Part shown: positions 21,327 through 35,333 of the stretch, piece by piece
How positions within the stretch are numbered: position 1 is the first letter of the stretch
How the letters are laid out: each line of letters opens with the position of its first letter
NCBI GenBank assembly: GCA_947166105.1
Contig: CAMVCZ010000018.1
Span: 1-58,699, forward strand
DNA from: an uncultured Bacteroidales bacterium
GTDB lineage: Bacteria > Bacteroidota > Bacteroidia > Bacteroidales > F082
DNA length: 58,699 bases
Direction of reading: 5' to 3'
Program-made: the position numbers and the translations under genes
Notes under the pieces: generated by a model
The model's database searches: none
The model's input: the letters and a program-made list of their open reading frames with translations, nothing else
What the model was told of the DNA's origin: nothing

Positions 21327-21409
21327 TTGGAAAAACGGACAAAATAATTCAAAAATGTGTTGGAAAAACGGACAAAAAGTAGTTGTTTTGCATTGGAAAA
21401 ACGGACAAA
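21327..21409 (+). repeat. Three direct 17-bp repeats at 33-bp period upstream of AAA+ ATPase
   Basis: TTGGAAAAACGGACAAA occurs without mismatch at 21327-21343, 21360-21376 and 21393-21409. The two 16-base spacers are unrelated to each other. The last copy ends two bases before the ATPase start codon at 21412. The exact 33-bp period and the perfect cores with free spacers indicate DNA- or RNA-level binding sites. The frame is open across the repeats (each encodes WKNGQ), but no promoter lies upstream to make that peptide likely. Confidence 0.8.
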
Positions 21410-21411
21410 TT

Positions 21412-22761
21412 ATGCTTAAAAGAAAGATTGACAAGTATTTATATGATTTTTTCAAGACCAATAATAAAGCTTTGCTTGTTACAGGTGCGAGGCAGACGGG
21501 GAAATCGTTCTCCATCAGCCATTTCGGGACAACCCATTTCGAAAGTTTCATCGAAATCAACTTTATTGAGATGCCTGATGCTGTGGATGTTATTGCCCAA
21601 GCGAAAGACCGCGACGACATGCTTTTAAGGCTCTCCGCTCTTGCCGACCGACCGCTCATCGAAGGCAAAACCTTGTTCTTCTTCGATGAGGTGCAGGAAT
21701 GTCCTTCCATAGTCACCGCTGTCAAGTTTTTGGTCTCTGAAGGCAGCTACCGATATATCTTGAGTGGCTCGCTTTTAGGCGTGGAACTCAACGACTTGCG
21801 TTCCGAACCAGTGGGTTATATGGATGTCGTTGAAATGTTTCCGCTCGACTTGGAGGAGTTTTTTATGGCATTGGGCGTGAACGATGACGTGATGGATGTG
21901 GTGAGAAATGCGTGGGAAAGCAAAAAGCCCGTTCCCGATTTCATCCATACGAAACTGATGGAACTATTTAGGCTTTACCTCATCGTTGGAGGGATGCCGG
22001 CGGTGGTGCAGAAATATTTGGACACCAACAACCTTCAGGATGTCCTTGCCGAACAGCAGGCCATCATTCGGCTCTACGAGCGCGACATCGCCAAATACGA
22101 CCGTAACCATAAACTCTACATTGAGGAAATCTTCGACATGATTCCTTCGGAACTCAACGCCAAGAACAAACGGTTTATCCTCAAGAACTTGAACGAAAAT
22201 ATGAAATTCTCGCGTTACGAGAACAGTTTCATCTGGCTTAAGGATGCTGGTGTGGCCTTGCCTGTTTATAATGTTGAGGAGCCGACTGTGCCGCTGAAAC
22301 TCTCGCGCTCGCGCAATTTGTTCAAGTTGTTTCAAAACGACGTAGGACTTTTGACATGTCAATTCGCGGAAGGCATTCAGTTGCGGATTCTCAAAGACGA
22401 CAAGGGAATAAATTTTGGTTCTGTATATGAGAACGTTGTGGCGCAAGAATTGTATGCGCATGGTTTTGAGTTGTATTACTTCAACAGCAAGAAGCAAGGT
22501 GAACTGGACTTTGTCATAGAGAAGGACGGCAAGGTCGTTCCCATAGAGGTGAAGTCGGGCAAAGACTACCAACGCCACAACGCCTTGACTAATGTCTTGG
22601 CCAATCCTGATTACCAAATCAAGAATGCTATAGTGTTCAGCAACAATAATTTGAGCCGAATCAACAAAACCATTTACTTGCCGATTTATATGGCCGCCTT
22701 CATAAAAAAAGCCACATTGCCATCAATTACATACACGGTTGATTTGTCGGGATTGAGATAA
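21412..22761 (+). CDS. AAA+ ATPase with DUF4143 domain
   Basis: The 449-residue protein has an N-terminal AAA+ core: Walker A GARQTGKS (Lys31), Walker B LFFFDEVQECP near 93, sensor LSGSLLGV near 120. The DUF4143 region follows from about residue 200. It ends in a PD-(D/E)XK-like block: GSVYENVVAQELYAHG, QGELDFVIEKDG and PIEVKSGKDY, with the Asp, Glu and Lys of the nuclease fold. Family members are free-standing and of unproven role; plasmid maintenance and defence have been suggested. The start at 21412 is chosen because upstream sequence is the repeat array. A strong terminator follows. A second member's C-terminus lies at 2-403. Confidence 0.85.
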   Translation: MLKRKIDKYLYDFFKTNNKALLVTGARQTGKSFSISHFGTTHFESFIEINFIEMPDAVDVIAQAKDRDDMLLRLSALADRPLIEGKTLFFFDEVQECPSIVTAVKFLVSEGSYRYILSGSLLGVELNDLRSEPVGYMDVVEMFPLDLEEFFMALGVNDDVMDVVRNAWESKKPVPDFIHTKLMELFRLYLIVGGMPAVVQKYLDTNNLQDVLAEQQAIIRLYERDIAKYDRNHKLYIEEIFDMIPSELNAKNKRFILKNLNENMKFSRYENSFIWLKDAGVALPVYNVEEPTVPLKLSRSRNLFKLFQNDVGLLTCQFAEGIQLRILKDDKGINFGSVYENVVAQELYAHGFELYYFNSKKQGELDFVIEKDGKVVPIEVKSGKDYQRHNALTNVLANPDYQIKNAIVFSNNNLSRINKTIYLPIYMAAFIKKATLPSITYTVDLSGLR

Positions 22762-22770
22762 TCAGTCAAC

Positions 22771-22811
22771 AAAAAAGTATCGCAAAAAGCCTATTTTTGC
22801 GATACTTTTTC
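22771..22811. terminator. Bidirectional terminator between ATPase and aldolase
   Basis: AAAAAGTATCGCAAAAA and TTTTTGCGATACTTTTT form a perfect 17-bp stem with a short loop. It serves the ATPase (plus) and fructose-bisphosphate aldolase (minus). Confidence 0.92.
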
Positions 22812-22830
22812 AATTGGCTTAAAAAACTGC

Positions 22831-23838
22831 TTATGCCTGCTCCAACTTGTCATTCGATCCTAAAACATTGATAATCTTATGTTCATAGAGTTTCTTCATG
22901 CTGTCGCGGGCGGGACCGAGGTACTTGCGGGGGTCGAACTCGGCGGGCTTTTCGGCGAAGGTCTTGCGGATGGCGGCGGTCATGGCCAGACGGCTGTCGC
23001 TGTCGATGTTGATCTTGCAGACGGCGCTCTTGGCGGCCTTGCGCAGCTGCTCCTCTGGGATGCCCACGGCGGCCTTCAGCGCACCACCGTATTTATTAAT
23101 GGTGTCCACCTCGTCTTGCGGCACCGACGAAGAGCCGTGCAGCACAATGGGGAAGCCGGGCAGTTTCTTCTCAATGGCTTCGAGCACATCGAAGGCCAAC
23201 GGAGGCGGCACTAAGCGACCCGTAGCGGGGTCGACGGTGCACTGCTCGGGAGTGAACTTGTAGGCGCCATGCGAGGTGCCGATGCTGATGGCCAAGGAGT
23301 CAACGCCGGTCTTGGTCACGAAGTCGATGACTTCTTCGGGCTTGGTGTAGTGGCTTTCTTCGGCGGCCACTTCGTCTTCTACGCCAGCCAACACGCCGAG
23401 TTCGCCTTCCACGGTTACGTCGAACTGATGGGCGTAGTCGACGACCTTTTTCGTGAGGGCCACGTTCTCGTCGTAAGGCAGCGCCGAGCCGTCGATCATC
23501 ACTGATGAGAATCCCATGTCGATGCACGATTTGCAAAGTTCAAACGAATCGCCGTGGTCGAGGTGGAGCACGATTTCAGGATGGGCGCAACCGAGTTCCT
23601 TGGCGTATTCCACGGCACCTTGGGCCATGTAGCGCAGCAGGGTCTGGTTGGCGTAGTTGCGTGCGCCTTTCGACACTTGCAGGATGACGGGCGACTTGGT
23701 TTCGACGGCAGCCATGATGATGGCCTGCATCTGTTCCATATTGTTGAAGTTGAAAGCGGGGATGGCATAGCCGCCGTCCACGGCCTTGGCGAACATTTTA
23801 CGGGTGTTCACAAGCCCTAATTCTTTATAACTTACCAT
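22831..23838 (-). CDS. fbaA: Class II fructose-1,6-bisphosphate aldolase
   Basis: The 335-residue zinc-dependent aldolase cleaves fructose 1,6-bisphosphate in glycolysis and makes it in gluconeogenesis. HLDHGDS (residues 92-98) carries the catalytic Asp and a zinc His. VEGELGVLAGVED follows, then the second and third metal sites in TSHGAYK and VLHGSSSVP, and NIDSDSRLAMT binds phosphate. It is full length. The gene symbol follows the class II type. The leader 23839-23874 is an AT-rich repeat and the -7 box TACTTTTG is at 23874-23881. Confidence 0.94.
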   Translation of the reverse strand: MVSYKELGLVNTRKMFAKAVDGGYAIPAFNFNNMEQMQAIIMAAVETKSPVILQVSKGARNYANQTLLRYMAQGAVEYAKELGCAHPEIVLHLDHGDSFELCKSCIDMGFSSVMIDGSALPYDENVALTKKVVDYAHQFDVTVEGELGVLAGVEDEVAAEESHYTKPEEVIDFVTKTGVDSLAISIGTSHGAYKFTPEQCTVDPATGRLVPPPLAFDVLEAIEKKLPGFPIVLHGSSSVPQDEVDTINKYGGALKAAVGIPEEQLRKAAKSAVCKINIDSDSRLAMTAAIRKTFAEKPAEFDPRKYLGPARDSMKKLYEHKIINVLGSNDKLEQA

Positions 23839-23881
23839 TTTATGATGATTGATTGTTGTTTGTTTAATTGTTGCAAAAGTA
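23839..23881 (-). promoter_or_regulatory. Promoter and A-rich leader of aldolase
   Basis: The minus-strand -7 box TACTTTTG (23874-23881) is followed by a leader made of AACAATTAAACAAACAAC and AATCAATCATC words up to the start codon, similar in style to the purB and fabZ leaders. Confidence 0.55.
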
Positions 23882-23902
23882 TGAATTTGTTTTCAAATTG
23901 TG

Positions 23903-26900
23903 TCATCTGACGCTCACTTTCTTGGAACAGCTCCCAATCGCACCACTTAATTTAATGATATACAGACCTGAAACAAGATGTCCGAGGTCAAGGGTCAAAG
24001 TTTCTCTTTCTTGCAAATGGCTAATGCTCTTGGCCATCATTCTCTCGCCCAGCAAGTTGTAGACCTCAACCACGGCATTGCCTTGCTGTTTTTCATCGAT
24101 AACGAGGTTGACTTTTCCATTGGTTGGGTTGGGATAGATATTGAAAAGGTTTGCATCCTGCTCGTCTATCGCGGTGGAATTGAACACATTGACCGCCAAA
24201 GCCTCGGAAACCGCAGTGGAGCCGCAAGGGTTCTCGTAGCGGTAACTCACCTTGGCCTGACCGCGATACTCGCCGCTCCACAGAACTTGGGCGCGGTGAC
24301 CTTCGCTCGTTATCGTGCCCGCCGTTTCGGGTTCGAGGCTCCAAGTGTAGATGACCTCGCTGATGTCCTCGCCTTCAAACTCGCTCTCGTTGACCAAGCG
24401 CAAGTCGACTTCGGTCGCTCCATTGGGCGTTTCGGGCGAATAACTTGGCTCGAAACTCGGAATGAGGCTCACGGCGACCGTGCTGCTTTGTTGGCTTCCG
24501 TTGAGTGCAGCGGTGCCTGTGAGCGTAAGTTCCACTTGGCCTTCAGCCATGTCGGTCGGACCGAAGGTGTAGGTTGGATGCTCCAAAGTGCTGTCGTCGA
24601 AAGTGCCGTCGCCGTTAGTCGACCATGCAAATTCGCTATGGTTGTAGATGTAGCCTTCGGGCGTGAAACTGGCATTAGAGCAAGTTTCGGTGTCGTCGCC
24701 GGCATAAAGCACCATTTTGGCAAAAGGCGGGAAACGGAGGTCGTCAATCATCACGGCATCTTCGCCGCCGCTGCCTTCGGTGTTTTTCTTGAAGGTGAAA
24801 CGAATCAGGTTGGTGCCGGCGGGCAGGGCGACTTCCGCTTTTTCCCAATCGCTAATGCCGCTCCACGTTTCCACTTCCTTGCCGTTCATCCAAAACTGGA
24901 GAATGTCGCCCTCTTCGGTGGAAGTCTTGTGGAGGAACGAAAACTTGTCTTCGACTTCTGTGGTAATGCCGATGTTCACCGTGGAAACCCCGTTGTTGTT
25001 GAGCACGGGCGACCGCAGGCAATGGCCTCCATGAGCGGTGGTGTCGGCCACGATAGTCCACTGTTTGTTGCCCGAGCCTATTTTCCATTGCAGGTTGGCG
25101 TTGAGGGTTTGGCCTTCAAAGTCCTCGATGGTATAGCCCAACGGAATCTGGCTCTCAAGCAGGTCGGTGTAGTGTCCGCTTTCGGCTTGCAGGCTGTAGT
25201 TGAGGATGCCGTCGGCGGCATTGTCGTCCACATTCACGAGGAAAGTGACTTTCGCCGAGCCGCCCGCATCAATGCCGGAAATGTCGATTTCGCTTTCCGC
25301 AACATTGAGGAAAGGTGCCAATAGGTTGAACTTGTTGCTGATTTCCAATGACTTGCTATGACCTTGGTTCTCAATGACGAAGGTCAAGTAGGAGGATTGG
25401 CCTTGCATTAGGCGGTCCATTTCGGCTCCGTCCAAATCGGTGAGTGTGAGTGCGACGTATTTCAAAACAGGTGCGTTCACGGCAAGGGTTACGCTGTCGA
25501 TGAAGGCATGATCGGCATTTTCCATTTTCAGGTAAAACTTTATCTTCTCTTGGTCTTCAAGGTCGTCGTTGAAATGAACCGTGAAAGCATTATTTTGCGT
25601 TTGTATCTCATTGGCGTTCATTCCATTGAAGGAAAATTCACTTTGCGTGATTCCCACGGAAGGATGGCTGCAACTGAGCGTGACTTTGAACTCGTCCAAA
25701 TTGTCGAACCCCGCATTGTGGATGCTGATGCCGAAGCGGCAGGTTTCGTTGTAGTCGGGGGCATGGTTGTCGTTGCCTTCTGCGTCGTTGATTTCCAAGG
25801 CGTTGAAAATCAAATAAGGAGCATCGGTCGGAATGGTGCTGATGAAATGCTCGTAGCGGTAATAATTCTGCTTGGTGATGGTGAGTTTCACCTTCGTCCC
25901 AACCTCTTGCGGCGTGACGGCGATGGTTTGCGTATCGCCCGTCGCAATGTCAAAACCTATGATTTGTCCATTGGCACTCAGGCAGATAACGGAGCCTTCG
26001 TCGGCCTTTACCTCATATTGGTCGCTGCCAGCGGGAATTACGGGCAACATTTCCACAGTGAGCGGCTGAGGCATTTCGCTGTAAAGTGTCATATAGGCGT
26101 CGCCGTGCTGGTGGAACAGGTAATAGGTGATTTCCTTCACGCTATTGTCAGTCCAAGAGGACTGGCGGAGGAAGAATTTTCCGGCGGCGTTACCGAAGGC
26201 TGGACGGATGAAATTGGTTTCGTGCTGCGTGCCGTAGGTGGGCATAAAGTCGGGCCACATGTTGTCGTATGCGCCCCAAACGTAAATGTCGTTGACGAAG
26301 GAATAAGAAACCTGCGTGGCCGCGATGAGGCCCAAGGCACCATATTGGTGGCGGTGGAATGCCTCGGCGAAACAGCCGTCAGCACCATTGTAATTGAACC
26401 TCCCCGTGAGGCAGTTGTTCGACATGACAAAAGTCAAGTCCTTGTTGGTCAATCGTTTGATGAAACCAATGCTGTAACTCGGTTCGCCCCAAACCTCCTC
26501 TGCACCGTGGTCGCGGTGCTGGATGAGGAACGCGCCGCTGTTGATGGCCTCGTTCACCGAATTGCCATTGGCGCTCCAGTCGGTGAGGTGCGACATGGTT
26601 TGCGGAATGTAGCCGCAGCCATTAGGCCCGAAATAATTGAGCACGGTGTTGGTGTGCTCGTAAGTCGACCAGCGGCTGCCAGGTGTGCCTTGGTAGATGG
26701 CGTTTTGGCGAACGGGGTGCTTGCCGAGTTCGTTGGTCCAAAAGCCGTTTACCACCTCGGAGCAAAGTTGGAACCAACGCTCCAATTGGAATCCCATCGC
26801 CGTGATGGGCTTGTCGTAGAAGTCGGGATTGGTGGGCGGTTGTCGCTCATAATCAAGGTTTTTCTTGATGATATGGTACATTTCTTCGAGGTTGCGTCCC

Positions 26901-27976
26901 GTGATGCGGCTCAAAATGATGTCGGGCATGTCGTTGTTGCCCATCACGGAATAGATATGGTCGGAAATGTAAGGGTTGTAGCCGTCGCCGCCCGGATGGT
27001 TGTTCATCGTGTAGGAAATGATGCCTTGAGTGCCGTCGTTGCTGTGGTCGCCAAGGAAAAGCACCGCCGCTGGAGGCATGTCCCAATTGTTGTAAGCGTT
27101 ACGGATGAAGTTGCGGATGGCCGTTTGGGTGTTGCCGCCGCAGTCGCTCACGGTAAAAATCTTAGTCGGGATGCCTTGCTCCATCCTGAATTGCTTGATG
27201 CTGTCGGCCAAAGCGATAAAGTCCTCATTGTCAGGTGTGATAATCATGTATTCACATCCTGTTTCGCGGTTTTCGTAATGCTTGCGGAGGCGTGCTCCGT
27301 AGTCCACTTCGGGCAGGTCGTCACTATTGAGGAGGATGTCTTGCAGGATTTGGTCCCATTCGGGAGTGCGATAACGCAGGTCGCCGATGGTGCCGTCGCC
27401 GCCTTCTATGTCAATTTCCAGCTCCAAATCGCTGTAAACGACCAATTCTTTGGTGACGGGGTTGTATTGGAATGGCATCACGCCCACCTGAACCACCTGA
27501 ACGCCACGGATGCTGCTGACCTCCGAAATTCGGAAAGGCGTTTCGGGATAGAAGGCGTTGCGCCCATAGATTTCTGGGTTTTTACGATAAACGGCGGGCG
27601 AATTGTCATTATCCAATTGAGGCTCAGCCGCCGGAATGAGGTCGACATTCTTGATGACCTTGGTCTTTGACGAAACCATCCTGAGCGAGGCCGTTGCGCC
27701 ATTGGGGATGGCAACAAAGGTGCTGTGGCTCGGCAGGTTGGGGGCACCAGCCTCGTTGGGCACATAGATGCCCGAAAGGGTGATGACCTGCCCCTGCACC
27801 TCGGCGCGGTCAGCATTTTCGATGGTTACCATGCCAAGGTTATGGCGAAGAGTCATTTGGCCGTTTTTCCTCCCGCTGATGCTGAACCCTTCAGGTTCGC
27901 CATTGAAGCGGTATTCTTGGGCTTGGAGTGTGATGCCTGCAATGATTGCAAGGGCGAAAAGTAGTGTTTTCTTCAT
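23903..27976 (-). CDS. Gingipain-like C25 family peptidase with T9SS sorting domain
   Basis: The 1357-residue secreted protease has a signal peptide (MKKTLLFALAIIAGITLQAQ) and a propeptide/'Peptidase_C25 propeptide' region to about 250. The C25 catalytic domain spans about 255-620 and contains LIQHRDHGAEEVWGEP (His490) and VMSNNCLTGRF (Cys522). The 32-residue His-Cys spacing is close to that of gingipains. Ig-like and jelly-roll modules follow (about 720-1270, including an MAM/adhesin-type region near 1000). The T9SS type A sorting domain forms the last 80 residues (FNIYPNPTNGKVNLVIDE, then LVSGLYIIKL). It is probably surface-attached and degrades host or dietary protein. Translation could begin 8 residues earlier, but the signal peptide supports 27976. 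The -7 box TATTTTTG is at 27998-28005. Confidence 0.9.
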   Translation of the reverse strand: MKKTLLFALAIIAGITLQAQEYRFNGEPEGFSISGRKNGQMTLRHNLGMVTIENADRAEVQGQVITLSGIYVPNEAGAPNLPSHSTFVAIPNGATASLRMVSSKTKVIKNVDLIPAAEPQLDNDNSPAVYRKNPEIYGRNAFYPETPFRISEVSSIRGVQVVQVGVMPFQYNPVTKELVVYSDLELEIDIEGGDGTIGDLRYRTPEWDQILQDILLNSDDLPEVDYGARLRKHYENRETGCEYMIITPDNEDFIALADSIKQFRMEQGIPTKIFTVSDCGGNTQTAIRNFIRNAYNNWDMPPAAVLFLGDHSNDGTQGIISYTMNNHPGGDGYNPYISDHIYSVMGNNDMPDIILSRITGRNLEEMYHIIKKNLDYERQPPTNPDFYDKPITAMGFQLERWFQLCSEVVNGFWTNELGKHPVRQNAIYQGTPGSRWSTYEHTNTVLNYFGPNGCGYIPQTMSHLTDWSANGNSVNEAINSGAFLIQHRDHGAEEVWGEPSYSIGFIKRLTNKDLTFVMSNNCLTGRFNYNGADGCFAEAFHRHQYGALGLIAATQVSYSFVNDIYVWGAYDNMWPDFMPTYGTQHETNFIRPAFGNAAGKFFLRQSSWTDNSVKEITYYLFHQHGDAYMTLYSEMPQPLTVEMLPVIPAGSDQYEVKADEGSVICLSANGQIIGFDIATGDTQTIAVTPQEVGTKVKLTITKQNYYRYEHFISTIPTDAPYLIFNALEINDAEGNDNHAPDYNETCRFGISIHNAGFDNLDEFKVTLSCSHPSVGITQSEFSFNGMNANEIQTQNNAFTVHFNDDLEDQEKIKFYLKMENADHAFIDSVTLAVNAPVLKYVALTLTDLDGAEMDRLMQGQSSYLTFVIENQGHSKSLEISNKFNLLAPFLNVAESEIDISGIDAGGSAKVTFLVNVDDNAADGILNYSLQAESGHYTDLLESQIPLGYTIEDFEGQTLNANLQWKIGSGNKQWTIVADTTAHGGHCLRSPVLNNNGVSTVNIGITTEVEDKFSFLHKTSTEEGDILQFWMNGKEVETWSGISDWEKAEVALPAGTNLIRFTFKKNTEGSGGEDAVMIDDLRFPPFAKMVLYAGDDTETCSNASFTPEGYIYNHSEFAWSTNGDGTFDDSTLEHPTYTFGPTDMAEGQVELTLTGTAALNGSQQSSTVAVSLIPSFEPSYSPETPNGATEVDLRLVNESEFEGEDISEVIYTWSLEPETAGTITSEGHRAQVLWSGEYRGQAKVSYRYENPCGSTAVSEALAVNVFNSTAIDEQDANLFNIYPNPTNGKVNLVIDEKQQGNAVVEVYNLLGERMMAKSISHLQERETLTLDLGHLVSGLYIIKLSGAIGSCSKKVSVR

Positions 27977-27997
27977 AGTTGATTCATTTATAGGCGA

Positions 27998-28005: not shown

Positions 28006-28020
28006 GGAATAATTTTGGGA

Positions 28021-28058: not shown

Positions 28059-28084
28059 TTCTTGAAGTAATATTAATGGTGATT

Positions 28085-28121
28085 AATATTAACCACAATT
28101 TATATTAATCATCATTTACAT
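28085..28121. repeat. 37-bp repeat flanking AAA+ ATPase, copy at 3' end
   Basis: The unit begins AATATTAA and ends AATCATCATTTACAT. It overlaps the last two codons of the ATPase, so TTACAT supplies the Met and the TAA stop. It matches the copy at 29430-29466 at 33 of 37 positions, in the same orientation. A partial inverted copy (ATTAATGGTGATTAATATTAA) runs into it from 28072. Confidence 0.8.
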
Positions 28122-29429
28122 ATCTTCGATAGACAATGCTTGAAGCGAAAGTTTATACTTTCCGAAAGCACTGGCGGGCAGCGCTTTTGTCTTTTCTTCA
28201 AGCGTTTTTAGGTTGATTTTCTCAGGGTTGCGCTTGATTTCCACCACAATGCCCGTACCTTCAAACTCGTTCAGGGCTATCATGTCGATTTCGTTGTCGC
28301 CTTTGCGGTCCCACCAGTTGCCGGCCATCGTGAACTCGCCCGATTCCATCGCTTTGGCTTGGAAATACTGCTCCAACGTCCTTCCCGAAAACTGCTCGTA
28401 ATACTTGCCCATGTTTTGCCGCAAGGCGGACATCTGCTGCCGCTCAATCAGCGACTGGTAAGGCCAGATGAAGCGGAACCAGAACCGCAAGAACTGGTCT
28501 GAAATCTCGTATGCCGTGACCTTGCTGTTGGGTTTGGCCAGCATGGGTTTCAGACGTTTCACGAGCATGAAGTTCTTCTCCAAGTTCTGCAAATAAACGC
28601 CCATGTCCTTCTGCATGACCCCATCGATTTCGCTGCGTTTGGTCATTCCGGCGGCAATCAGTTGAAGGACAGAAAAATAGGTGTTGCTCTCGTCGCTAAA
28701 CTCTTGGTTCATCAGGTCGCGGCCTTCGCTGAGGAAATAGGAGTCGGGGCGGCACACATAGTTGAGCATTTTTTCTTTCGTGTAGCATTGGGCGTCCATC
28801 AGCAACTCCACGTATTTGGCCACGCCGCCAGTGATCATGTAAAGGCAGAGCAGGTCTTCGTTCTTGTAGTTGGGGTTGTGGTCGCGGAAGATTTGCTTCA
28901 ACACTTCGATGCGGAAGGGGAGGAGCGTGAATTTCGAGGTTGGGCGACCGTAAAGCGGCTCGTTTTCGTCCTCGAAGATGCGTTTCATCAATGATTGTAT
29001 GCTGCCCGAGGCCACCAAGTGCAGGTGCGACTCGCGATGATAGCGGTCCCAAAGGTCTTGTATTTCGCTGAAGATGGCGGGATTCACCTTTTGGAGGTTC
29101 TGGAACTCGTCGAAAAAGACGGTGAAATGACGCTGCAACGACTCTTTCATGATGACCTCAAACAAGTCGCGGAAACGGCTGATTTGGCCGTAAACTTGAA
29201 TGTTCAACTGCTCTTGAATGGTCTGCTGGAACTTTTGGCAAAGCACGGCCTCGCTGTCTTTCGAGACAAAGAGATAGGCAATGTTTTTCCCTTCCAAAGC
29301 CTTGTTAATCAACGAGGTCTTTCCCACGCGGCGGCGACCCGTCAGCACGGTGAACACCGCCGACCTTTCGGTTTGCTTCTCGCTCTGCAACAGCAGATCC
29401 AGTTCCATTTCCCTGTCGTAGAATTTCAT
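28116..29429 (-). CDS. AAA+ ATPase of the archaeal-type (ATPase_2/DUF234) group
   Basis: The 437-residue protein has Walker A TGRRRVGKTSL (Lys37), Walker B FTVFFDEFQNLQ near 105, and the sensor VASGSIQSLMKRIF near 140. LYMITGGVAKYVELL is typical of the archaeal-ATPase-like family abundant in Bacteroidota. The C-terminal DUF234-like domain (about 330-437) carries NEIDMIALNEFEG and VVEIKRNPEK, which fit a PD-(D/E)XK nuclease-like fold (Asp, Glu, Lys). It is encoded alone. The frame is bracketed by 37-bp direct repeats, one touching the start codon, the other overlapping the stop. The promoter is at 29475-29504. Confidence 0.85.
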   Translation of the reverse strand: MKFYDREMELDLLLQSEKQTERSAVFTVLTGRRRVGKTSLINKALEGKNIAYLFVSKDSEAVLCQKFQQTIQEQLNIQVYGQISRFRDLFEVIMKESLQRHFTVFFDEFQNLQKVNPAIFSEIQDLWDRYHRESHLHLVASGSIQSLMKRIFEDENEPLYGRPTSKFTLLPFRIEVLKQIFRDHNPNYKNEDLLCLYMITGGVAKYVELLMDAQCYTKEKMLNYVCRPDSYFLSEGRDLMNQEFSDESNTYFSVLQLIAAGMTKRSEIDGVMQKDMGVYLQNLEKNFMLVKRLKPMLAKPNSKVTAYEISDQFLRFWFRFIWPYQSLIERQQMSALRQNMGKYYEQFSGRTLEQYFQAKAMESGEFTMAGNWWDRKGDNEIDMIALNEFEGTGIVVEIKRNPEKINLKTLEEKTKALPASAFGKYKLSLQALSIEDM

Positions 29430-29466
29430 AATATTAATCGTAATTTATATAAATCATCATTTACAT
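29430..29466. repeat. 37-bp repeat flanking AAA+ ATPase, copy at 5' end
   Basis: The unit starts at the base directly next to the ATPase start codon. It reads AATATTAAT..., then TTTATATAAATCATCATTTA and CAT. It lies between the promoter (29475-29504) and the coding sequence, so it is the whole 5' leader of the mRNA. It matches the copy at 28085-28121 with four differences. Confidence 0.8.
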
Positions 29467-29474
29467 TTATGCCG

Positions 29475-29504: not shown

Positions 29505-29522
29505 CATTTTGACGCATTTTTT
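29491..29522. terminator. Terminator of S41 protease operon
   Basis: AAAAATGCG and CGCATTTTT form a 9-bp stem around CCAAACATTTTGA, with T/A tracts on both sides. It lies about 65 bases after the S41 stop codon on the minus strand. Confidence 0.85.
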
Positions 29523-29531
29523 CTCAAAATA

Positions 29532-29571
29532 ATGTAAATGGTGATTAATATTAATCGCTGTTTACATTTTT
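29532..29571. repeat. Inverted partial copy of the ATPase-flanking repeat
   Basis: ATGTAAATGGTGATTAATAT at 29532-29551 is the reverse complement of the end of the 37-bp repeat with one change (TAATCATCATTTACAT in the repeat). It ends in TTTACAT again at 29561-29567. With the copy at 28072-28092 this makes the repeats roughly symmetric around the ATPase gene. Confidence 0.6.
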
Positions 29572-29587
29572 TTTGTTTGGACCGTTA

Positions 29588-30862
29588 TCAATAACCCTTA
29601 ATGTACTCAATGGCCGCGTCGAGTTGGGGCTTGTAGCTGTCGTTATGGTCTTTGCGGAGTACGATTTGGCCGGGCGTGTAGCCGATGCCTTCCAAGACCG
29701 TGCCGTCCACCGCTGCCTCGAATGTCGAAGTGTAAACAAAATGGTGCATCGTTTCTGTACTGCCAAACGGGCCGCCATAGCTGAGGGCGATGCTGCTGGC
29801 GGGTTGCAGCGGTCCGGTGGCGCCGTAGGTGCGCTCGCCGATGGTGTGGCTCGTGGGCAGCACCTTATCGATGATGACGGTCTCGATTTCGCCCATGCTG
29901 ATGGAGTTCAAGTCGCAAAGCACGACGAGGGGAATGTTCTCGGCGGCGAGGTCGCGGTGGTATTGGCTCTGCGGGTCGATGTAATAAGGTGTCCAGGCGG
30001 AGTGCTCGTAGCGTCCTGGGCCTTCTTTATACCGGGTTTGCATCACTTGGGTGCGCTCGTTGATGAAGCTGCCGACGAGGTAGTCGAGGTCGTCCTGATA
30101 ACCGCCCGTGTTGGCGCGGTTGTCGAGGATGATGCCGGCCAGCTCTTCGCGCGGCGTATCCTTGATGGCGGTCAGCCAATGATTGATGACGGCGGCAGCC
30201 TGTTGGGTCGTTGGGTTGCTGCTTTTCAGGATGGGAGTGAGGGCAGCGCAAGATTGCCACAGGTAAGGGATTTTGCGTCCGTCGGGGAGCTTGAACAAGC
30301 AATAATGGTACATGGCGGTTCGGCCGATTTCTTCAATCGTTCCCATGAAATCCTCGTTAGCTTCAAGTTCATAATGCGTACCAAGCCCGAGGACAAAACC
30401 ATGGAGGCTTCTTCGCGCGAAGGAAGGGACTTCAATGAAATAATCGCGTTTTGCCGTTTCAATTTCTCCAGGGTCGACGAAGAATGATTCGACCGTGTCG
30501 GTTGCGGCAGGGAAGAGGTTCTTGATTTCGATGACCATGTGGTGGTCTTTCAGGCCACCCATCGCACCGGTGTAGAGTTCCTTGAGTTCGGCCAAGGTCA
30601 CGTCTTGGCCGGCTTCGTGTTGTGCGTCGAGGGCGTGGAACTTGGGCATGTATTCGTCATAAACGGCATCCCAGTCGGTGTCGTCGACGTCCCAAAACAC
30701 ATAGCCCGTGCTGAGGCATTTCCATAGGTACTCGAATTGGCTCGAGTAATTGTCGTAGGCCAAATGGTCGCTTTCGCCGATGTAGGGATGATAGTCGGCT
30801 TCTTTGCGGCAACCGCTGAAAACCAAGGCGATGATGGCTAATATGATGATGCTTCTTTTCAT
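29588..30862 (-). CDS. S41-family peptidase lipoprotein
   Basis: The 424-residue protein has a lipoprotein signal with lipobox FSGC (Cys18). A helical N-terminal part follows (about 35-110: YLWKCLSTGYVFWDVDDTDWDAVYDEY, the tail-specific protease N-terminal pattern). The S41 catalytic domain contains ELAGIILDNRANTGGYQDDL, LCDLNSISMGEIE (nucleophile Ser in the SISMGE loop) and TIGERTYGATGP. No PDZ domain is evident. It is probably anchored in the outer membrane, facing the periplasm or outside. The barrel gene 30875-31555 lies 12 bases upstream, so the two are an operon. Confidence 0.85.
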   Translation of the reverse strand: MKRSIIILAIIALVFSGCRKEADYHPYIGESDHLAYDNYSSQFEYLWKCLSTGYVFWDVDDTDWDAVYDEYMPKFHALDAQHEAGQDVTLAELKELYTGAMGGLKDHHMVIEIKNLFPAATDTVESFFVDPGEIETAKRDYFIEVPSFARRSLHGFVLGLGTHYELEANEDFMGTIEEIGRTAMYHYCLFKLPDGRKIPYLWQSCAALTPILKSSNPTTQQAAAVINHWLTAIKDTPREELAGIILDNRANTGGYQDDLDYLVGSFINERTQVMQTRYKEGPGRYEHSAWTPYYIDPQSQYHRDLAAENIPLVVLCDLNSISMGEIETVIIDKVLPTSHTIGERTYGATGPLQPASSIALSYGGPFGSTETMHHFVYTSTFEAAVDGTVLEGIGYTPGQIVLRKDHNDSYKPQLDAAIEYIKGY

Positions 30863-30874
30863 AGTTGTTCGGTT

Positions 30875-31555
30875 TTAGAATTTGTAATAACAGCCTATAC
30901 TCACGGAAAGCGTGTTCAAGTAGCGCGGGTCGTTTAAGTGGGTATAACCTTTGTGATAACTGACGAGATCATAATAGTAGAGCGCATCGAGGTTGAAACC
31001 TCCATTGTGGACAACATCGAAACTCAGGCCGATGCCGCCAACAACGCCTGCCGTGAAACGTTGGTCTTCGCTGTTGAACTCGCGCTTTTCATCGAAGTCG
31101 TTGAAATAGACGTAATAGTCTGTCATCCAGTAGGTCTTGCCATATTGGTCGGCTTGCAACCAATAGCCGGCAAAGCCTCCACAAAGCAAATGTCCGCGTA
31201 TCTTCTCGCCTCCAAAAGAGAAATCGGCCATCACGGGAAGCATGGCATAAATATTACGATACTCTGTATAGACCGGATCCAGATAATTGAGGTGGCGGTC
31301 CATACGATGTGAACGCAACATGATGCTGAGGTCGGCGCGTACAGCAAGCCAGTCGTTGAAGTTATAGCGTGTCAGTAAACCTGCATCTATGCCAACCAAC
31401 GGCGAGTAGGTCTCGTCAATGCGGCCTGTATAGGACCTATCGGCAGTAGTCCATGTAGGTCCAAATTTTGCGCCAACAGCCCATTGTGCATTGGCCTCCA
31501 CCGCCATCCAGCACATCAGGACGAGAACGATGGCTTTGATAAAATTGTTTTTCAT
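30875..31555 (-). CDS. Outer membrane beta-barrel protein (PorT-like family)
   Basis: The 226-residue protein has a signal peptide (ending VEANAQ, residue 24). The small beta barrel begins WAVGAKFGPTWTTADR, runs through alternating aromatic strands (WLAVRADLSIMLR, FTAGVVGGIGLSFDVV) and ends in the terminal strand SVSIGCYYKF with the usual aromatic last residue. It is inserted in the outer membrane. It is co-transcribed with the S41 lipoprotein. No function beyond the family. Confidence 0.8.
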   Translation of the reverse strand: MKNNFIKAIVLVLMCWMAVEANAQWAVGAKFGPTWTTADRSYTGRIDETYSPLVGIDAGLLTRYNFNDWLAVRADLSIMLRSHRMDRHLNYLDPVYTEYRNIYAMLPVMADFSFGGEKIRGHLLCGGFAGYWLQADQYGKTYWMTDYYVYFNDFDEKREFNSEDQRFTAGVVGGIGLSFDVVHNGGFNLDALYYYDLVSYHKGYTHLNDPRYLNTLSVSIGCYYKF

Positions 31556-31578
31556 AAAACAGAAAATTTAGTTAAACG

Positions 31579-31905
31579 TTAATTTTTCTCTTTCGTCATT
31601 ACTTTTTCGGCCTGTTTCTTCGGCTCGCGGCGGGTGTCCCAGAAAGCGGCGATATAAATGGTTTCGCCATCGATGAAATACACCATTTTGCTTAATCTGT
31701 TGATAACCGTGCTTCTATAGGAAAGTTTTCGGCCTTCAAACAATGGGTCAATCGCCCCAAGAAAAGGGTTGGTCAATATCAACCGTTCTGTTTCACGAAC
31801 TTGCTTAATAAAGTCTTTCCTTGCTTCGCTGCCAAATCTTTTTTGTATGTATCTGGCAATTTGGTACAAAGACTTCTTTGCTTTCGGGTCCCAAATCGCT
31901 TTCAT
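31579..31905 (-). CDS. RelE/ParE-type toxin
   Basis: The 108-residue protein has the ParE/RelE fold pattern: IWDPKAKKSLYQIARYIQKR, ERLILTNPFLGAIDPLFEG, YRSTVINRLSKMVYFIDGET and IYIAAFWDTRREPKK. The late W-D-x-R-R-x-P motif is common in Bacteroidota members. As a toxin it would inhibit mRNA translation or gyrase. It overlaps the antitoxin gene by 4 bases (31902-31905), so the two are translationally coupled. Confidence 0.85.
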   Translation of the reverse strand: MKAIWDPKAKKSLYQIARYIQKRFGSEARKDFIKQVRETERLILTNPFLGAIDPLFEGRKLSYRSTVINRLSKMVYFIDGETIYIAAFWDTRREPKKQAEKVMTKEKN

Positions 31906-32168
31906 GCCATCTCAAGTTGAAGTTCTTCTTGCTCAAATTCTTCTTCCAAATCTCGGAAAACTTCTTCGCTGGGGATACCTAATCCTGCCTTATAATTGTG
32001 CTCTGCCTCGTCAAGCATGGCATTGAGTTCGTCCAAAGTGTATGGCTTCAGGTTTTCCTCATCGGCATCGGCGTATGCCATCAAGTTCATAGCCATCCAA
32101 CGCATATTGTCTGGTGAGAGTGTGCTGTGGAGATAATCCAACAATCCTCTTAATGTTGATTCGCTCAT
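31902..32168 (-). CDS. Antitoxin of RelE/ParE-type pair
   Basis: The 88-residue acidic protein has LKPYTLDELNAMLDEAEHNY with IPSEEVFRDLEEEF, the pattern of Bacteroidota antitoxins that pair with ParE-like toxins. The unusual N-terminus (about 35 residues, LRGLLDYLHSTLSPDNMRWM) may give dimerisation and DNA binding. It is upstream of the toxin and overlaps it by 4 bases. The promoter -7 box TACTTTTG is at 32195-32202. Confidence 0.75.
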   Translation of the reverse strand: MSESTLRGLLDYLHSTLSPDNMRWMAMNLMAYADADEENLKPYTLDELNAMLDEAEHNYKAGLGIPSEEVFRDLEEEFEQEELQLEMA

Positions 32169-32194
32169 GGTTTGCCTGTTTTGTTATTATGCGA

Positions 32195-32202
32195 CAAAAG
32201 TA
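32195..32202 (-). promoter_or_regulatory. -7 box TACTTTTG of toxin-antitoxin operon
   Basis: CAAAAGTA on the plus strand gives a perfect minus-strand box 27 bases before the antitoxin start codon. Confidence 0.6.
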
Positions 32203-32224
32203 CAATTTTTCGTCAAAATGCAAC

Positions 32225-32259
32225 AAAAAAATCCGCCAAATAGCATTGACGGATTTTTT
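32225..32259. terminator. Terminator downstream of pyrroline-carboxylate dehydrogenase
   Basis: AAAAAATCCG, a 14-base loop and CGGATTTTTT form a perfect stem with T tracts on both strands. It stops the dehydrogenase transcript on the minus strand before the toxin-antitoxin promoter. Confidence 0.85.
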
Positions 32260-32262
32260 CTT

Positions 32263-32290
32263 GTAGAGACGCGGCGCGCCACGTTTCTAC
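32263..32290. repeat. Dispersed GTAGAGACG palindrome, copy 2
   Basis: The 28-base sequence begins GTAGAGACG, has the centre CGGCGCGCCA and ends CGTTTCTAC. It is the same length as copy 1 (4691-4718), shares the ends and has a GC palindromic core. It lies between a terminator and the 3' end of the dehydrogenase gene. Confidence 0.75.
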
Positions 32291-32301
32291 CAACAAAACG
32301 A

Positions 32302-33933
32302 TTAATCCTTTGCCAGGAACGGATACCCGTAAGCGGCAGCAGGAACGAAGGTGTTCTTGATGGCGCGGGGGCTGGTCCAGCGGATGAGGTTCCAGAGGCC
32401 GCCGGCCTTGTCGTTGGTGCCGCTGGCGCGGGCGCCGCCGAAGGGCTGCATACCGACCACGGCTCCCGTGGGCTTGTCGTTCACGTAGTAGTTGCCTGCC
32501 GCGTGGCGCAGCTTGTCGTTGGCAATCCTTTGGGCCTTCATGCAGTTGCCGAAGAAGGCGCCAGTGAGGGCGTAAGGCGAGCTCTGGTCGCATACATCCA
32601 GCATCTCCTCAAACTTGTTGTCGTCGTAGACGTAGATGGTGATGATGGGTCCGAAGATTTCTTCCACCATGCTCTCGTAGTTCGGCACCTTGGCGAGAAT
32701 GACGGTAGGCTCCACGAAGTAACCCACGGTCTTGTCGCAGTTGCCACCGAATACGATCTCCGCATCGGCGCTGGCCTTGGCGCGGTCGATGTAGCCCTTG
32801 CAGTTGTCGAACGAAGCCTCGTCGATGACGGCGTTCACATAGTTCGAGAAGTCTTTCACGTCACCCATCTTGATGGTGCTCATCATGTCGCCAACGCGGT
32901 TCTTCACGTCGTTCCACATCGAAGCGGGGATGTAGGCACGCGAGGCGGCGCTGCACTTTTGGCCTTGGTATTCGAAGGCGCCACGCACGATGGCCACGGC
33001 CACCTCTTGCGGGTCGGCGCTGTTGTGGACAAAGATGAAGTCCTTGCCGCCGGTCTCACCCACGAGACGAGGATAGGCCTTGTACATGTCGAGGTTCTGT
33101 CCGGTGGTTTTCCACAGGCTCTTGAAGGTGCCCGTGCTGCCGGTGAAGTGGATGGCGTTGAAGTTCTTGTCCTTCAGGGCCACGCCGCTGATCACGCTGC
33201 CCTTGCCAGGGAGGAAGTTGACCACGCCGGCGGGAAGTCCGGCTTCCATGAAGATGCGCATGTCGGTGTAGTTCGACAGCAGGGCGGTCGTCGAGGGCTT
33301 CCAGATGGTGGTGTTGCCCATCAAGGCGGGGGTCATGTTCAGGTTGGAGGCGATGGAGGTGAAGTTGAAAGGCGTGATGGCGAACACGAAGCCTTCCAAC
33401 GGACGGTATTCGGTGCGGTTCAGCTGGTCGTTGGCCGAAGCGGGCTGCTCGGCATAGAGCTTGCTGGCGTAGTGGTTGTTGTAGCGGAAGAAGTCGATGG
33501 TCTCGCAGGCACTGTCGATTTCGGCTTGGAAGCAGTTCTTCGACTGGCCGAGCATGGTGGCGGCGTTGATGCGGGCGCGGTACTTGGTGGCCAACATCTC
33601 GCCGATGCGTGCCATGATGGCGGCGCGCTCGTCCCAAGGCGTGTTCTCCCAGTCGTGCTTGGCGGCTTGGGCGGCGTCGATGGCCATGCGGACTTCCTTT
33701 TCGCCTACCTTGTGGTAGCGTGCAATGACGTGTTTGTGGTCGTGAGGCATCACCACTTCGCCCATGTCGCCCGTGCGGACTTCCTGGCCGTTGATGATGG
33801 CGGGGATTTCAACGATTTCGTTGGATTGTCTTTCGAGTTCCTTCTGGAGTTCGATTCTTTCCGGACTGCCTGGCTTGTAGCTTTTTACAGGCTCGTTTTC
33901 CGGCTTCGCAAATGTGATTAGTGCGTTGTTCAT
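32302..33933 (-). CDS. pruA: L-glutamate gamma-semialdehyde (1-pyrroline-5-carboxylate) dehydrogenase
   Basis: The 543-residue NAD-dependent aldehyde dehydrogenase oxidises glutamate semialdehyde to glutamate, the second step of proline (and arginine) catabolism. The nucleophile is Cys327 in YQGQKCSAASR. The nearby ETGGKDFIFV holds the conserved Glu, HFTGSTGTFK is the NAD-binding turn and EEIFGPIITIYVY a late motif. The length (about 540) is that of the stand-alone P5C dehydrogenase subgroup rather than a PutA fusion. No proline dehydrogenase gene is in the window. The leader upstream has AAATCTT-type tandem words, and the -7 box TATATTTG is at 33985-33992. Confidence 0.92.
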   Translation of the reverse strand: MNNALITFAKPENEPVKSYKPGSPERIELQKELERQSNEIVEIPAIINGQEVRTGDMGEVVMPHDHKHVIARYHKVGEKEVRMAIDAAQAAKHDWENTPWDERAAIMARIGEMLATKYRARINAATMLGQSKNCFQAEIDSACETIDFFRYNNHYASKLYAEQPASANDQLNRTEYRPLEGFVFAITPFNFTSIASNLNMTPALMGNTTIWKPSTTALLSNYTDMRIFMEAGLPAGVVNFLPGKGSVISGVALKDKNFNAIHFTGSTGTFKSLWKTTGQNLDMYKAYPRLVGETGGKDFIFVHNSADPQEVAVAIVRGAFEYQGQKCSAASRAYIPASMWNDVKNRVGDMMSTIKMGDVKDFSNYVNAVIDEASFDNCKGYIDRAKASADAEIVFGGNCDKTVGYFVEPTVILAKVPNYESMVEEIFGPIITIYVYDDNKFEEMLDVCDQSSPYALTGAFFGNCMKAQRIANDKLRHAAGNYYVNDKPTGAVVGMQPFGGARASGTNDKAGGLWNLIRWTSPRAIKNTFVPAAAYGYPFLAKD

Positions 33934-33935
33934 TA

Positions 33936-33992
33936 CTTGTTATTTAAAGATTTGAAGATTTAGAATTTCAAGATTTTTGCGGTGCAAATATA
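33936..33992 (-). promoter_or_regulatory. Promoter and tandem-word leader of pruA
   Basis: The minus-strand -7 box TATATTTG (33985-33992) is followed by a leader of AAATCTT/GAAATTC/TAAATCT/TCAAATC heptamer-like words up to the start codon. Confidence 0.5.
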
Positions 33993-34023
33993 AAGATTTT
34001 AGGTTGTAACGGCGAAAAAACAA

Positions 34024-35109
34024 TCATATTTTTGGTTGCAACAGGTTTTGTTGTATCCACCGTTGGAAAAACGGGTCTTCAATCTCGTAGGTGTCCGTCT
34101 TGATGACATAGCCGTTTTTGGTTAGGCGTTTCAGCGAACTGAACGAGGTGCTGGTGGATGTATCGCGCTGCATCATAGGGCTTTTGCCTTGTGCAAGCAG
34201 CATCAAAGTGTTTCGGTCGGTTTTGTTGAGGTTGATCCAAAAACGTTCAAAATCAAGGTCGTGCATTTGAATCAGTTGTTCAATGGCTTGGTTCACCACA
34301 TTGTCCACAATCTTCTGATATTGAATGGCATCCCACACTTGGAAGGCCAATTGCTGTGTGTAATACGGATGGCAATGCGTCACTTGCAGAATCTCATGGC
34401 TGATGCTCTCACTTTGGGTGGTGATTTTGCTGAAACGCTCGTTCAAGAACTGGAAAAACTCGTCTTCGGGGATGCGTTTCAGTTGCATGATGAGGCCGAA
34501 ATGGTAAAAAGGCGACTTTTTGTCATTGAAAATCTCCTCCATCATCGACTCTTGGCTGCCCAAGAAGATGCAGTTTATCTTGTCCTGAAGTTGCAAAATG
34601 CCTCTCAGTTTCTTGTCCAAACCTTTCTCTATCTCCTTGATTTCCTGAAACTCATCGAAAATGAGGATGATGCGCTTCTTCTCGGTGCTGACCTCGTTGA
34701 CCAATTGCAGCACATCTTCTAAAATCATGTCGTTGTTTTCCTTGCTGAACGGATTGAACGACACTTCAATGCTATCCGTCATCGGGTTGGTGCTGATGGT
34801 GGGCACAATCCTGAAATTGCGGAGCAGCACCTTCAGGTTTTTCATCGGATAGAGCTTTAATACAGATTCCAAAATCCTGTTCGACAGGTCTTTGGTGCTG
34901 GTGATGCTCTGCATGTTGAGCATGACGTAAGGCCGTTTCAGTTGCTTGACGGCTTTCAAAACGAGGCTGCTTTTCCCGAAACGGCGCGGACTGATGAGCG
35001 CGAGGTGGTTCTCGCTGTCCATCACTCGGCAGATGTATTGCAACTCCTCTTGTCGGTCGGTGAAAAACTCCTCCTCAACGACCGTTCCGAATTTAAATGG
35101 ATTCTTCAT
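34024..35109 (-). CDS. AAA+ ATPase of the archaeal-type group
   Basis: The 361-residue protein has the N-terminal FKFGTVVEEEFFTDRQEEL, Walker A ISPRRFGKSSLV (Lys46), Walker B ILIFDEFQEIKEI near 150 and sensor IFLGSQESMMEEIF near 182. The C-terminal half is a winged-helix region (SLKRLTKNGYVIKTDTYEIE, DPFFQRWIQ). It lacks the nuclease-like end of the other two ATPases here. It is encoded alone. Its upstream region has two layers of repeats: a tandem 15-mer touching the start codon and three 53-bp-period palindromes upstream of the promoter. Such ATPases resemble STAND/Orc-like switches; no role is established. Confidence 0.82.
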   Translation of the reverse strand: MKNPFKFGTVVEEEFFTDRQEELQYICRVMDSENHLALISPRRFGKSSLVLKAVKQLKRPYVMLNMQSITSTKDLSNRILESVLKLYPMKNLKVLLRNFRIVPTISTNPMTDSIEVSFNPFSKENNDMILEDVLQLVNEVSTEKKRIILIFDEFQEIKEIEKGLDKKLRGILQLQDKINCIFLGSQESMMEEIFNDKKSPFYHFGLIMQLKRIPEDEFFQFLNERFSKITTQSESISHEILQVTHCHPYYTQQLAFQVWDAIQYQKIVDNVVNQAIEQLIQMHDLDFERFWINLNKTDRNTLMLLAQGKSPMMQRDTSTSTSFSSLKRLTKNGYVIKTDTYEIEDPFFQRWIQQNLLQPKI

Positions 35110-35138
35110 TGCGAAATTTTTCGTTGCGAAATTTTTCG
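35109..35138. repeat. Tandem 15-bp repeat at the ATPase start codon
   Basis: TTGCGAAATTTTTCG occurs twice in direct tandem (35109-35123, 35124-35138), sharing one base with the start codon and ending at the -7 box. Each copy contains the near palindrome CGAAATTTTTCG. It therefore spans the whole 5' leader. Confidence 0.75.
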
Positions 35139-35170
35139 CAAAGATATAGGTTTATTTCCAAACCAGCAAA
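35139..35170 (-). promoter_or_regulatory. Promoter of AAA+ ATPase 34024-35109
   Basis: On the minus strand TTTG (35167-35170), a 20-base gap and TATCTTTG (35139-35146) match the Bacteroidota consensus exactly. The -7 box touches the tandem 15-mer, and the palindrome array begins 16 bases beyond the -33 box. Confidence 0.75.
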
Positions 35171-35185
35171 ACGTTTTTGCATTTT

Positions 35186-35333
35186 ATTTACCCGTGAAAC
35201 CCTATTTTTATCATTTCGTGGGTAATTATAACTTTTTTATTTACCCGTGAAATGGTGGTTTCTGTGTTTCGTGGGTAATTATCGTTTTCTTATTTACCCA
35301 CGAAACGGCATTTTAGGTATTTCGCGGGTAATT
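35186..35333. repeat. Three palindromic units at exact 53-bp period upstream of AAA+ ATPase
   Basis: Left arms ATTTACCC(GT/CA)GAAA start at 35186, 35239 and 35292. Right arms TTTCG(T/C)GGGTAATT start at 35214, 35267 and 35320. Arm spacing is therefore 53 bp in each case (about five helical turns), while loops (14 bases) and linkers (11 bases) differ in sequence. The array lies upstream of the ATPase promoter on the minus strand, where an activator or repressor, possibly the ATPase itself, could bind. Confidence 0.85.

What the first reader, a model, noticed from the sequence alone, without database searches (positions are those of the whole stretch)
21327..35333. Three stand-alone AAA+ ATPases, each with a private, exactly spaced repeat set at the 5' end
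The window holds three complete orphan ATPases of the archaeal-type/DUF4143 kind (21412-22761, 28116-29429, 34024-35109). Each has repeats at its 5' end that are unrelated in sequence between genes but tightly ordered: 17 bp x3 at 33-bp period; 37-bp direct repeats around the frame; 53-bp-period palindromes plus a tandem 15-mer. In all three cases a repeat touches or nearly touches the start codon. If general, each ATPase lineage may come with its own cognate repeat, for example self-binding sites for autoregulation, a partition-like or silencing system, or recognition sites for movement of single genes.
Basis: partly seen in the sequence, partly recalled or inferred. Interest (0 to 1): 0.78.

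Follow-up and report, generated by a model that had tools for sequence, protein, structure and literature searches.

The report
Mobile ATPase genes with private operators
This gut bacterium's genome holds more than seventy related ATPase genes of a kind listed as candidate phage defences, most with a short repeated DNA sequence just in front of the gene; in the largest subfamily the repeat changes in step with the part of the protein predicted to read DNA, so each ATPase likely binds, and would switch off, its own gene.

Summary
The repeats are real. Gene 1 (PADLOC candidate defence PDC-S01) has three 17-bp units at 33-bp spacing whose core occurs nowhere else in the 3.5-Mb genome; gene 2 (PDC-S27) has about 38-bp palindromes on both sides. 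I examined 77 such ATPase genes here: 65 have upstream repeats beyond 99% of shuffles, with subfamily-typical spacing (about 33, 22-23 or 53 bp). In 62 of 78 named relatives of gene 1, from Bacteroidota to Treponema, Akkermansia and Firmicutes (7 of 14), the array stands before the gene. Its unit has a constant half (TTGGAAAA) and a variable half. Variable bases covary with residues 262-265, beside the predicted recognition helix (K265 with G, 47 of 57; R265 with T, 25 of 30; first of 358 columns), on few independent switches. I infer that each ATPase binds its own array and represses itself. Array and gene come and go together: 14 of 15 relatives without gene 1 in its slot lack the array; the other keeps it beside a gene scrap. 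Correction: the palindromes before gene 3 belong to a lost PDC-S27 gene, as two relatives show. Binding, regulation and defence are untested. PDC-S01 is called the fourth most common prokaryotic defence, without direct proof.

The parts
21327..21409 (+). Array of gene 1: three 17-bp units TTGGAAAAACGGACAAA at 33-bp spacing, the last ending 2 bp before the ATG
   Evidence: the 15-bp core has exactly 3 matches in the whole genome, all here
21412..22761 (+). Gene 1: AAA_14 ATPase with DUF4143, 449 aa, PADLOC PDC-S01
   Evidence: Pfam; PADLOC E 2.8e-201
22111..22275 (+). Predicted winged helix of gene 1 (residues 234-288); codons 264-265 at 22201-22206 are beside helix 266-278
   Evidence: AlphaFold2 model, (mean pLDDT 87.8, but block means 61 and 55 at residues 251-270); winged-helix reading is mine; covariation
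22417..22560 (+). PD-(D/E)XK-type nuclease residues of gene 1 (E340, E364, D366, K381)
   Evidence: E340 invariant and E364, D366, K381 in at least 90% of 27 aligned paralogues; nuclease name from family knowledge and PMC12988326
28064..28121 (.). Palindromic element behind gene 2, overlapping its stop codon
28116..29429 (-). Gene 2: ATPase_2 with DUF234, 437 aa, PADLOC PDC-S27
   Evidence: Pfam; PADLOC E 2e-41
29430..29467 (.). Palindromic element of gene 2 abutting its start codon
   Evidence: kept in relatives
29531..29568 (.). Outer palindrome of gene 2 (AATGTAAA..TTAATATTAA..TTTACATT type)
   Evidence: pattern found only here in the genome
34024..35109 (-). Gene 3: ATPase_2 domain alone, 361 aa, no array of its own shown
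   Evidence: only weak PADLOC matches
35101..35130 (-). 15-mer pair at the start codon of gene 3, resembling the slot's own hairpin
   Evidence: resemblance by eye
35188..35331 (.). Orphan array: three TTACCC-type palindromes at 53-bp spacing, left by a lost PDC-S27 ATPase
   Evidence: private; the same array precedes a PDC-S27 gene in G123 and G124

Best explanation
Genes 1 and 2 belong to a large set of single-gene units, each an AAA+ ATPase with a predicted nuclease domain plus a repeat array that sits at its own locus, and the ATPase likely binds that array through its predicted winged helix and would thereby repress its own promoter. Shown: the arrays, their spacing, the privacy of the three window arrays, linkage to the gene across phyla in gene 1's subfamily, presence and absence together with the gene, and covariation of variable array bases with residues 262-265. 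Inferred: direct binding; several protomers on one face of the DNA (33, 22-23 and 53 bp lie near 3, 2 and 5 helical turns); repression, because the arrays lie around the promoter or between it and the start codon. Untested: what the ATPase-nuclease does when released; the PADLOC label suggests phage defence. Because array and helix change together, dozens of paralogues could stay uncrossed in one cell. Gene 3 is the exception: it sits behind the orphan array of a lost PDC-S27 gene.
For: 65 of 77 ATPase upstream regions have repeats over 99% of shuffles. Commonest spacings of the 71 ordered arrays: 32-34 or 65 bp in 54, 22-23 in 12, 52-54 in 5. Core of gene 1's unit: 3 matches in the genome, all in its array; likewise gene 3's palindrome and gene 2's pattern. 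Array present in 62 of 78 unmasked named relatives. Residue 265 against motif position 12: phi 0.71 in pairs 50-90% identical, first of 358 columns, next 0.53. Tree-based contrasts: residue 265 first of 167 columns for position 12 and first of 162 for position 10; 263 and 262 first and second of 178 for position 13. Motif similarity follows protein identity, r 0.518 against a maximum of 0.233 in 1000 permutations. Last upstream unit ends a median 16 bp before a -7-type box (41 of 46 arrays have one). 14 of 15 relatives with purB and fba but no gene 1 lack the unit; 3 of 3 fetched relatives with gene 1 have three units.
Against: No binding or expression data. The tree holds few independent K/R switches: 4 supported pairs, sign test p 0.25; with residues 255-290 left out only 3 pairs remain and 265 is not ranked. 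With residues 185-205 left out the top columns for positions 9 and 14 move outside the helix region. The model is least certain just there (262-264 below pLDDT 50). 12 of 77 own ATPase genes show no repeat over the limit, 16 of 78 relatives miss the score, among them 7 of 14 Firmicutes. Close relatives with the same residue 265 can differ at position 12. The 3' arrays of the PDC-S27 class (17 of 29) are not explained by repression. G043 keeps the array with only a C-terminal scrap of gene 1.
Confidence: 0.68

Rival explanations
1. The arrays are chiefly the ends of a single-gene mobile element: the ATPase-nuclease binds them to excise or insert its own gene, and the promoter overlap is secondary.
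For: In the PDC-S27 class 17 of 29 genes have the 5' array again behind the gene. Units come and go: 10 of 14 genomes compared lack #60 at its site, an empty site exists for #37 with a 42-bp host tail duplicated in the filled one, and 7 of 74 units are flanked by repeats of host tails, terminators or similar of 36-309 bp.
Against: In the 33-bp class only 6 of 38 genes repeat anything from the 5' flank behind the gene, so arrays there are at one end. Intact empty sites of gene 1 (14 of 15) lack the array. No transposase domain was found in genes 1-3. No junction shared by many insertions was found.
Confidence: 0.2
2. The arrays mark self for the nuclease: the ATPase parks, inactive, on its own array and is released or switched on by invading DNA, as a one-gene defence.
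For: Genes 1 and 2 match PDC-S01 and PDC-S27; nuclease-type residues are kept in the paralogues; fold neighbours include STAND immune proteins such as Avs5 and Avs3.
Against: Nothing here tests activity. Position around the promoter fits regulation without it.
Confidence: 0.25
3. The arrays have no tie to the protein: tandem duplication near promoters, carried along by linkage.
For: Array and protein are inherited together, so correlated similarity alone proves no contact; few independent switches.
Against: The array stands before the gene across phyla, the spacing is typical of the subfamily, and the best covarying residues fall beside the predicted DNA-reading helix in most tree versions. 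Other genes of the genome rarely have such repeats (7 of 60).
Confidence: 0.07

Closest known systems
PDC-S01 and PDC-S27, single-gene phage defence candidates of PADLOC
   Same: Genes 1 and 2 match them over nearly the whole length; ATPase fused to a PD-(D/E)XK domain as described in PMC12988326 (passages)
   Different: No cognate array, self-operator or single-gene mobility is mentioned in the passages I read
Archaeal Orc1/Cdc6 with origin recognition boxes
   Same: AAA+ ATPase with a winged helix and cognate repeats by its gene; DNA-bound Cdc6/Orc1 (2qby, 2v1u) is among the fold neighbours; the repeat arrangement is recalled
   Different: These genes carry a nuclease-type domain and occur in dozens of copies; no origin function is shown
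Iteron-type plasmid initiators (recalled)
   Same: Direct repeats at about 22-bp spacing by the gene of the protein that binds them and represses itself
   Different: Chromosomal, AAA+ ATPase, several spacings; no replication role tested
Archaeal STAND ATPases 2qen (Pyrococcus) and 2fna (SSO1545)
   Same: Best fold matches: 2qen for both models, 2fna second for gene 2
   Different: I saw no report of arrays for them in the search listings
RAYT transposases with REP sequences (recalled)
   Same: Single gene flanked by lineage-specific palindromes (gene 2's class)
   Different: The three arrays tested are not dispersed in the genome; no such transposase domain in genes 1-3

Membership tests
PDC-S01 (gene 1) | Match to the PADLOC model over the full protein | tested here: met
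   PDLC04792 E 2.8e-201, residues 1-446; 27 of 27 aligned paralogues match a PDC-S01 model
PDC-S01 (gene 1) | Protects against phage | not testable with these tools
PDC-S27 (gene 2) | Match to the PADLOC model | tested here: met
   PDLC04985 E 2e-41, residues 2-413; 20 of 20 aligned relatives in this genome match
PDC-S27 (gene 2) | Protects against phage | not testable with these tools
PDC-S01 or PDC-S27 (gene 3) | Match to a PADLOC model | tested here: inconclusive
   Best E 3.4e-6 over 78 residues
Self-regulating iteron or Orc1/Cdc6-like system | Cognate repeats beside the gene of a winged-helix protein | tested here: met
   Arrays; winged helix is my reading of models
Self-regulating iteron or Orc1/Cdc6-like system | The protein binds those repeats | tested here: inconclusive
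   Covariation of residues 262-265 with motif positions 10, 12, 13; few independent switches
Self-regulating iteron or Orc1/Cdc6-like system | The array serves as a replication origin | not tested
   No test was made
REP/RAYT | Repeats dispersed through the genome | tested here: not met
   Three window arrays found only at their own loci
Homing endonuclease gene | Recognition sequence present in the empty allele | tested here: not met
   14 of 15 gene-1 slots without the gene lack the unit; the other, G043, holds a gene scrap; three gene-2 sites read by eye lack the palindrome

The most novel reading that the evidence does not exclude
[quoted passage not shown] What is counted as one of the commonest prokaryotic defences would then be an expanding set of self-silenced ATPase-nuclease elements.
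Probability: 0.38. Interest if true: 0.9.

Novelty: new variant of a known kind. Interest (0 to 1): 0.76.

Why it matters
[quoted passage not shown] A DNA address before the gene, with residues that covary with it, gives a first concrete handle: what the protein binds, how many copies could stay separate in one cell, and how expression might be released. The orphan array before gene 3 also warns that such addresses can be credited to the wrong neighbour.

Tried and rejected
Homing and REP-like dispersal: rejected as told in the membership rows. A common target gene: 112 of 157 loci had a co-oriented frame ending within 520 bp upstream, and my pattern for permease tails found 0 of them, although #37 sits directly behind a frame that I read as an ABC permease; no general target is claimed. 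Correlation of protein segments with array similarity along sliding windows was weak (best partial r 0.24, residues 226-255). No PDB sequence hit for gene 1 or gene 2. The exact ends of the #60 insertion could not be fixed because its flanks diverge. Covariation for PDC-S27 was not attempted.

Literature: searches for DUF4143 + repeat, DUF234 + ATPase, PDC-S01, DUF4143, 'archaeal ATPase' + repeats + upstream + Bacteroidetes, STAND ATPase terms, COG1373, and PABY2304/SSO1545/PF01637/COG1672. No listed title or abstract start that I saw describes such arrays. Passages only were read in PMC12988326, PMC13356809, PMC4406477, PMC4158269, PMC1913061 and PMC5760070; none of those passages mentions them. 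Most subscription papers and all preprints on bioRxiv are outside the library.

Changes made on rechecking: gene-1 slots recounted, the G043 orphan array found, the Firmicutes share and the 45-of-76 own count added, PADLOC run on the 27 own ATPases not yet scanned.
Full report
Setting. The window is contig C18 of a 3,520,585-base assembly in 100 contigs. Neighbouring genes are ordinary: adenylosuccinate lyase (purB), fructose-bisphosphate aldolase (fba), an S41 peptidase and an aldehyde dehydrogenase (short names are mine).

The observation. The frames and repeats exist as described. Gene 1 is AAA_14 with DUF4143, gene 2 ATPase_2 with DUF234, gene 3 ATPase_2 alone. PADLOC names gene 1 PDC-S01 (E 2.8e-201) and gene 2 PDC-S27 (E 2e-41); gene 3 matches only weakly (best 3.4e-6).

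A genome full of them. AAA_14 has 83 matches in this genome, 76 over the family's cut-off. I set six aside before counting: two frames of 796 and 846 codons, one of 160, and three under the cut-off that look to me like other proteins. Of the remaining 77, 54 have direct and 30 inverted repeats in the 250 bp upstream above the 99th percentile of dinucleotide shuffles, 65 one or the other. In a comparison on part of the sequence, 10 of 15 ATPase genes and 7 of 60 other genes pass; three of the seven share an intergenic region with an ATPase array. A stricter search for ordered arrays, in 76 own regions and 29 of relatives, finds 45 of 76 and 26 of 29, and 0 of 80 mononucleotide-shuffled regions. 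The commonest spacing is 32-34 (or 65) bp in 54 arrays, 22-23 in 12 and 52-54 in 5. At E 1e-6 PADLOC matches 27 of 27 and 20 of 20 ATPases in two alignments, #40 and #45 and at least 23 of the 27 others, so at least 72 of 77 match PDC-S01 or PDC-S27.

Private. The 15-bp core of gene 1's unit occurs exactly three times in the genome, all in its array. The gene 3 palindrome occurs three times, all there. The gene 2 pattern occurs only in its outer palindrome, once on each strand. The other arrays were not tested in this way.

It follows the gene. Relatives of gene 1 at 77-97% identity carry the array. Of 80 named loci at 53-96% identity (a capped list of 576), two are masked upstream. Of the other 78, 62 have an array over the score and 59 have 32-34 or 65-67 bp spacing: Bacteroidota, Treponema, another spirochaete, 2 of 3 Akkermansia-type loci and 7 of 14 Firmicutes. 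Of the 16 below the score, 8 still show two or three TTGGAAAA-like units (my count); four loci named Clostridia or Clostridiales show nothing clear.

A code. Of 121 arrays, 105 fit the anchor TTGGAAAA in at least 6 of 8 letters; 16 were left out. In the 105, positions 1-8 are nearly constant and 9-14 vary. Some genomes came in through two collections, so near-duplicates remain; the effective number is 78. Residue 265 is K with G at position 12 in 47 of 57 rows, and R with T in 25 of 30. Among pairs 50-90% identical, a difference at residue 265 predicts one at position 12 better than any other of 358 columns (phi 0.71, next 0.53 at residue 186). The AlphaFold2 model (mean pLDDT 87.8) has helices 234-249, 257-260 and 266-278 and strand 282-288, which I read as a winged helix with 262-265 as the cap of its recognition helix. 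The model is weakest just there: block means 61 and 55 at 251-270, below 50 at 262-264.

Tree control. With residues 255-275 left out of the tree, 265 ranks first of 167 columns for position 12 and first of 162 for position 10; 263 and 262 rank first and second of 178 for position 13; the tops for positions 14 and 9 are 274 and 281. With nothing left out the tops for 9, 10, 12, 13, 14 are 281, 265, 265, 263, 274. Leaving out 185-205 keeps 265 for 10 and 12 and 262/263 for 13, but the tops for 9 and 14 become 307 and 233. Leaving out 255-290 keeps 281 for 9 and 263 for 13, while 265 drops out because only three supported pairs remain; in them position 12 goes the same way in 2.0 and the other way in 0.2 on average. 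The sign test alone is not significant (4 pairs, p 0.25). Close relatives with the same residue can also differ at position 12, for example L228 and L223 at 90% identity. The signal is consistent but rests on few switches.

Position. A -7-type box (consensus recalled) was found in 41 of 46 own arrays examined; the last upstream unit ends a median 16 bp before it, interquartile range 7-35, and six arrays have a unit downstream of the box. Gene 1 itself has no box of that exact pattern. This fits an operator around the promoter; no transcript was seen.

Units that come and go. Of 18 fetched relatives with both purB and fba on the stretch, 3 have gene 1 and three units each; 15 lack gene 1, of which 14 have no unit (one mismatch allowed) and one, G043, keeps the array fused to a C-terminal scrap of the gene. 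G057 holds another ATPase (61% to #40) in that slot. Gene 2 with its palindromes stands in five different neighbourhoods in seven genomes; sites without it in G030, G029 and G043 show no palindrome by eye. #60 is present in 3 of 14 genomes compared; 10 have gaps under 100 bp without it and G049 has another frame there (31% to #80). #37 follows a stop codon directly, with the last 42 bp of that gene repeated behind the unit; G055 has the single-copy empty site and G047 another ATPase at that spot (48% to #9). Of 74 units, 25 have direct repeats between the 5' and 3' flanks: 18 are arrays (one a neighbour's) and 7 host tails, terminators or similar of 36-309 bp. In the PDC-S27 class 17 of 29 repeat the 5' array behind the gene, in the 33-bp class 6 of 38 share something, in the 23-bp class 1 of 8.

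Gene 3. The TTACCC palindromes occur in 6 of 99 genomes of the genus. In G123 and G124 they precede an ATPase in the same slot between the NlpC-like gene and the aldehyde dehydrogenase; the G123 protein matches PDC-S27 at E 9e-187. In the window's genome, G047 and G055 that gene is missing and gene 3 stands there; in G120 an unidentified frame follows. Gene 3 of G030 has no palindromes. The 15-mer at gene 3's start resembles the hairpin in the empty slot of G057 and G032 and behind the G123 ATPase (by eye).

How it works, most likely. Fold searches place both models nearest the archaeal ATPase 2qen (TM-score by query 0.41 and 0.54), then CED-4 or SSO1545 and Orc1/Cdc6 proteins, some DNA-bound. 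I take the ATPase to bind its array as a row of protomers on one face of the DNA and to shut its own promoter. This explains spacing, privacy, joint change and position. It leaves open the 3' arrays of the PDC-S27 class and the trigger.

Standing. The proteins belong to known candidate-defence families. The self-addressed operator and the single-gene unit were not described in what I could search.

Noticed in passing
L066 2788-2829 and 4528-4569; L177 2064-2265 and 3717-3916 (G047): The 3' end of a RadA-like gene (my reading) is repeated beside ATPases #54 and #35; in G047 array copies stand there without #54.
   Followed up: partly
L003, 309-bp repeat flanking ATPase #2: ATPase #2 is flanked by 309-bp direct repeats of the neighbouring gene's end; relatives were searched but the junctions were not resolved.
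   Followed up: partly
L150 4780-4860 (G043): Gene 1's array survives next to a C-terminal scrap of gene 1, a decaying unit.
   Followed up: yes
L307 3523-4431 (G120): The TTACCC palindromes are followed here by an unidentified 302-codon frame instead of an ATPase.
   Followed up: no
Upstream of #53 (L083) and #72 (L079): A similar stretch reading gtagggctgtcacaaggttgctgagcctgtcgaagcaccgtggcagc stands before both, perhaps a dispersed element.
   Followed up: no
L311 1-1502 (G047:C3): The slot of #37 holds another ATPase (48% to #9) with its own GCTTTCTGTAAAAAGCA repeats upstream.
   Followed up: partly
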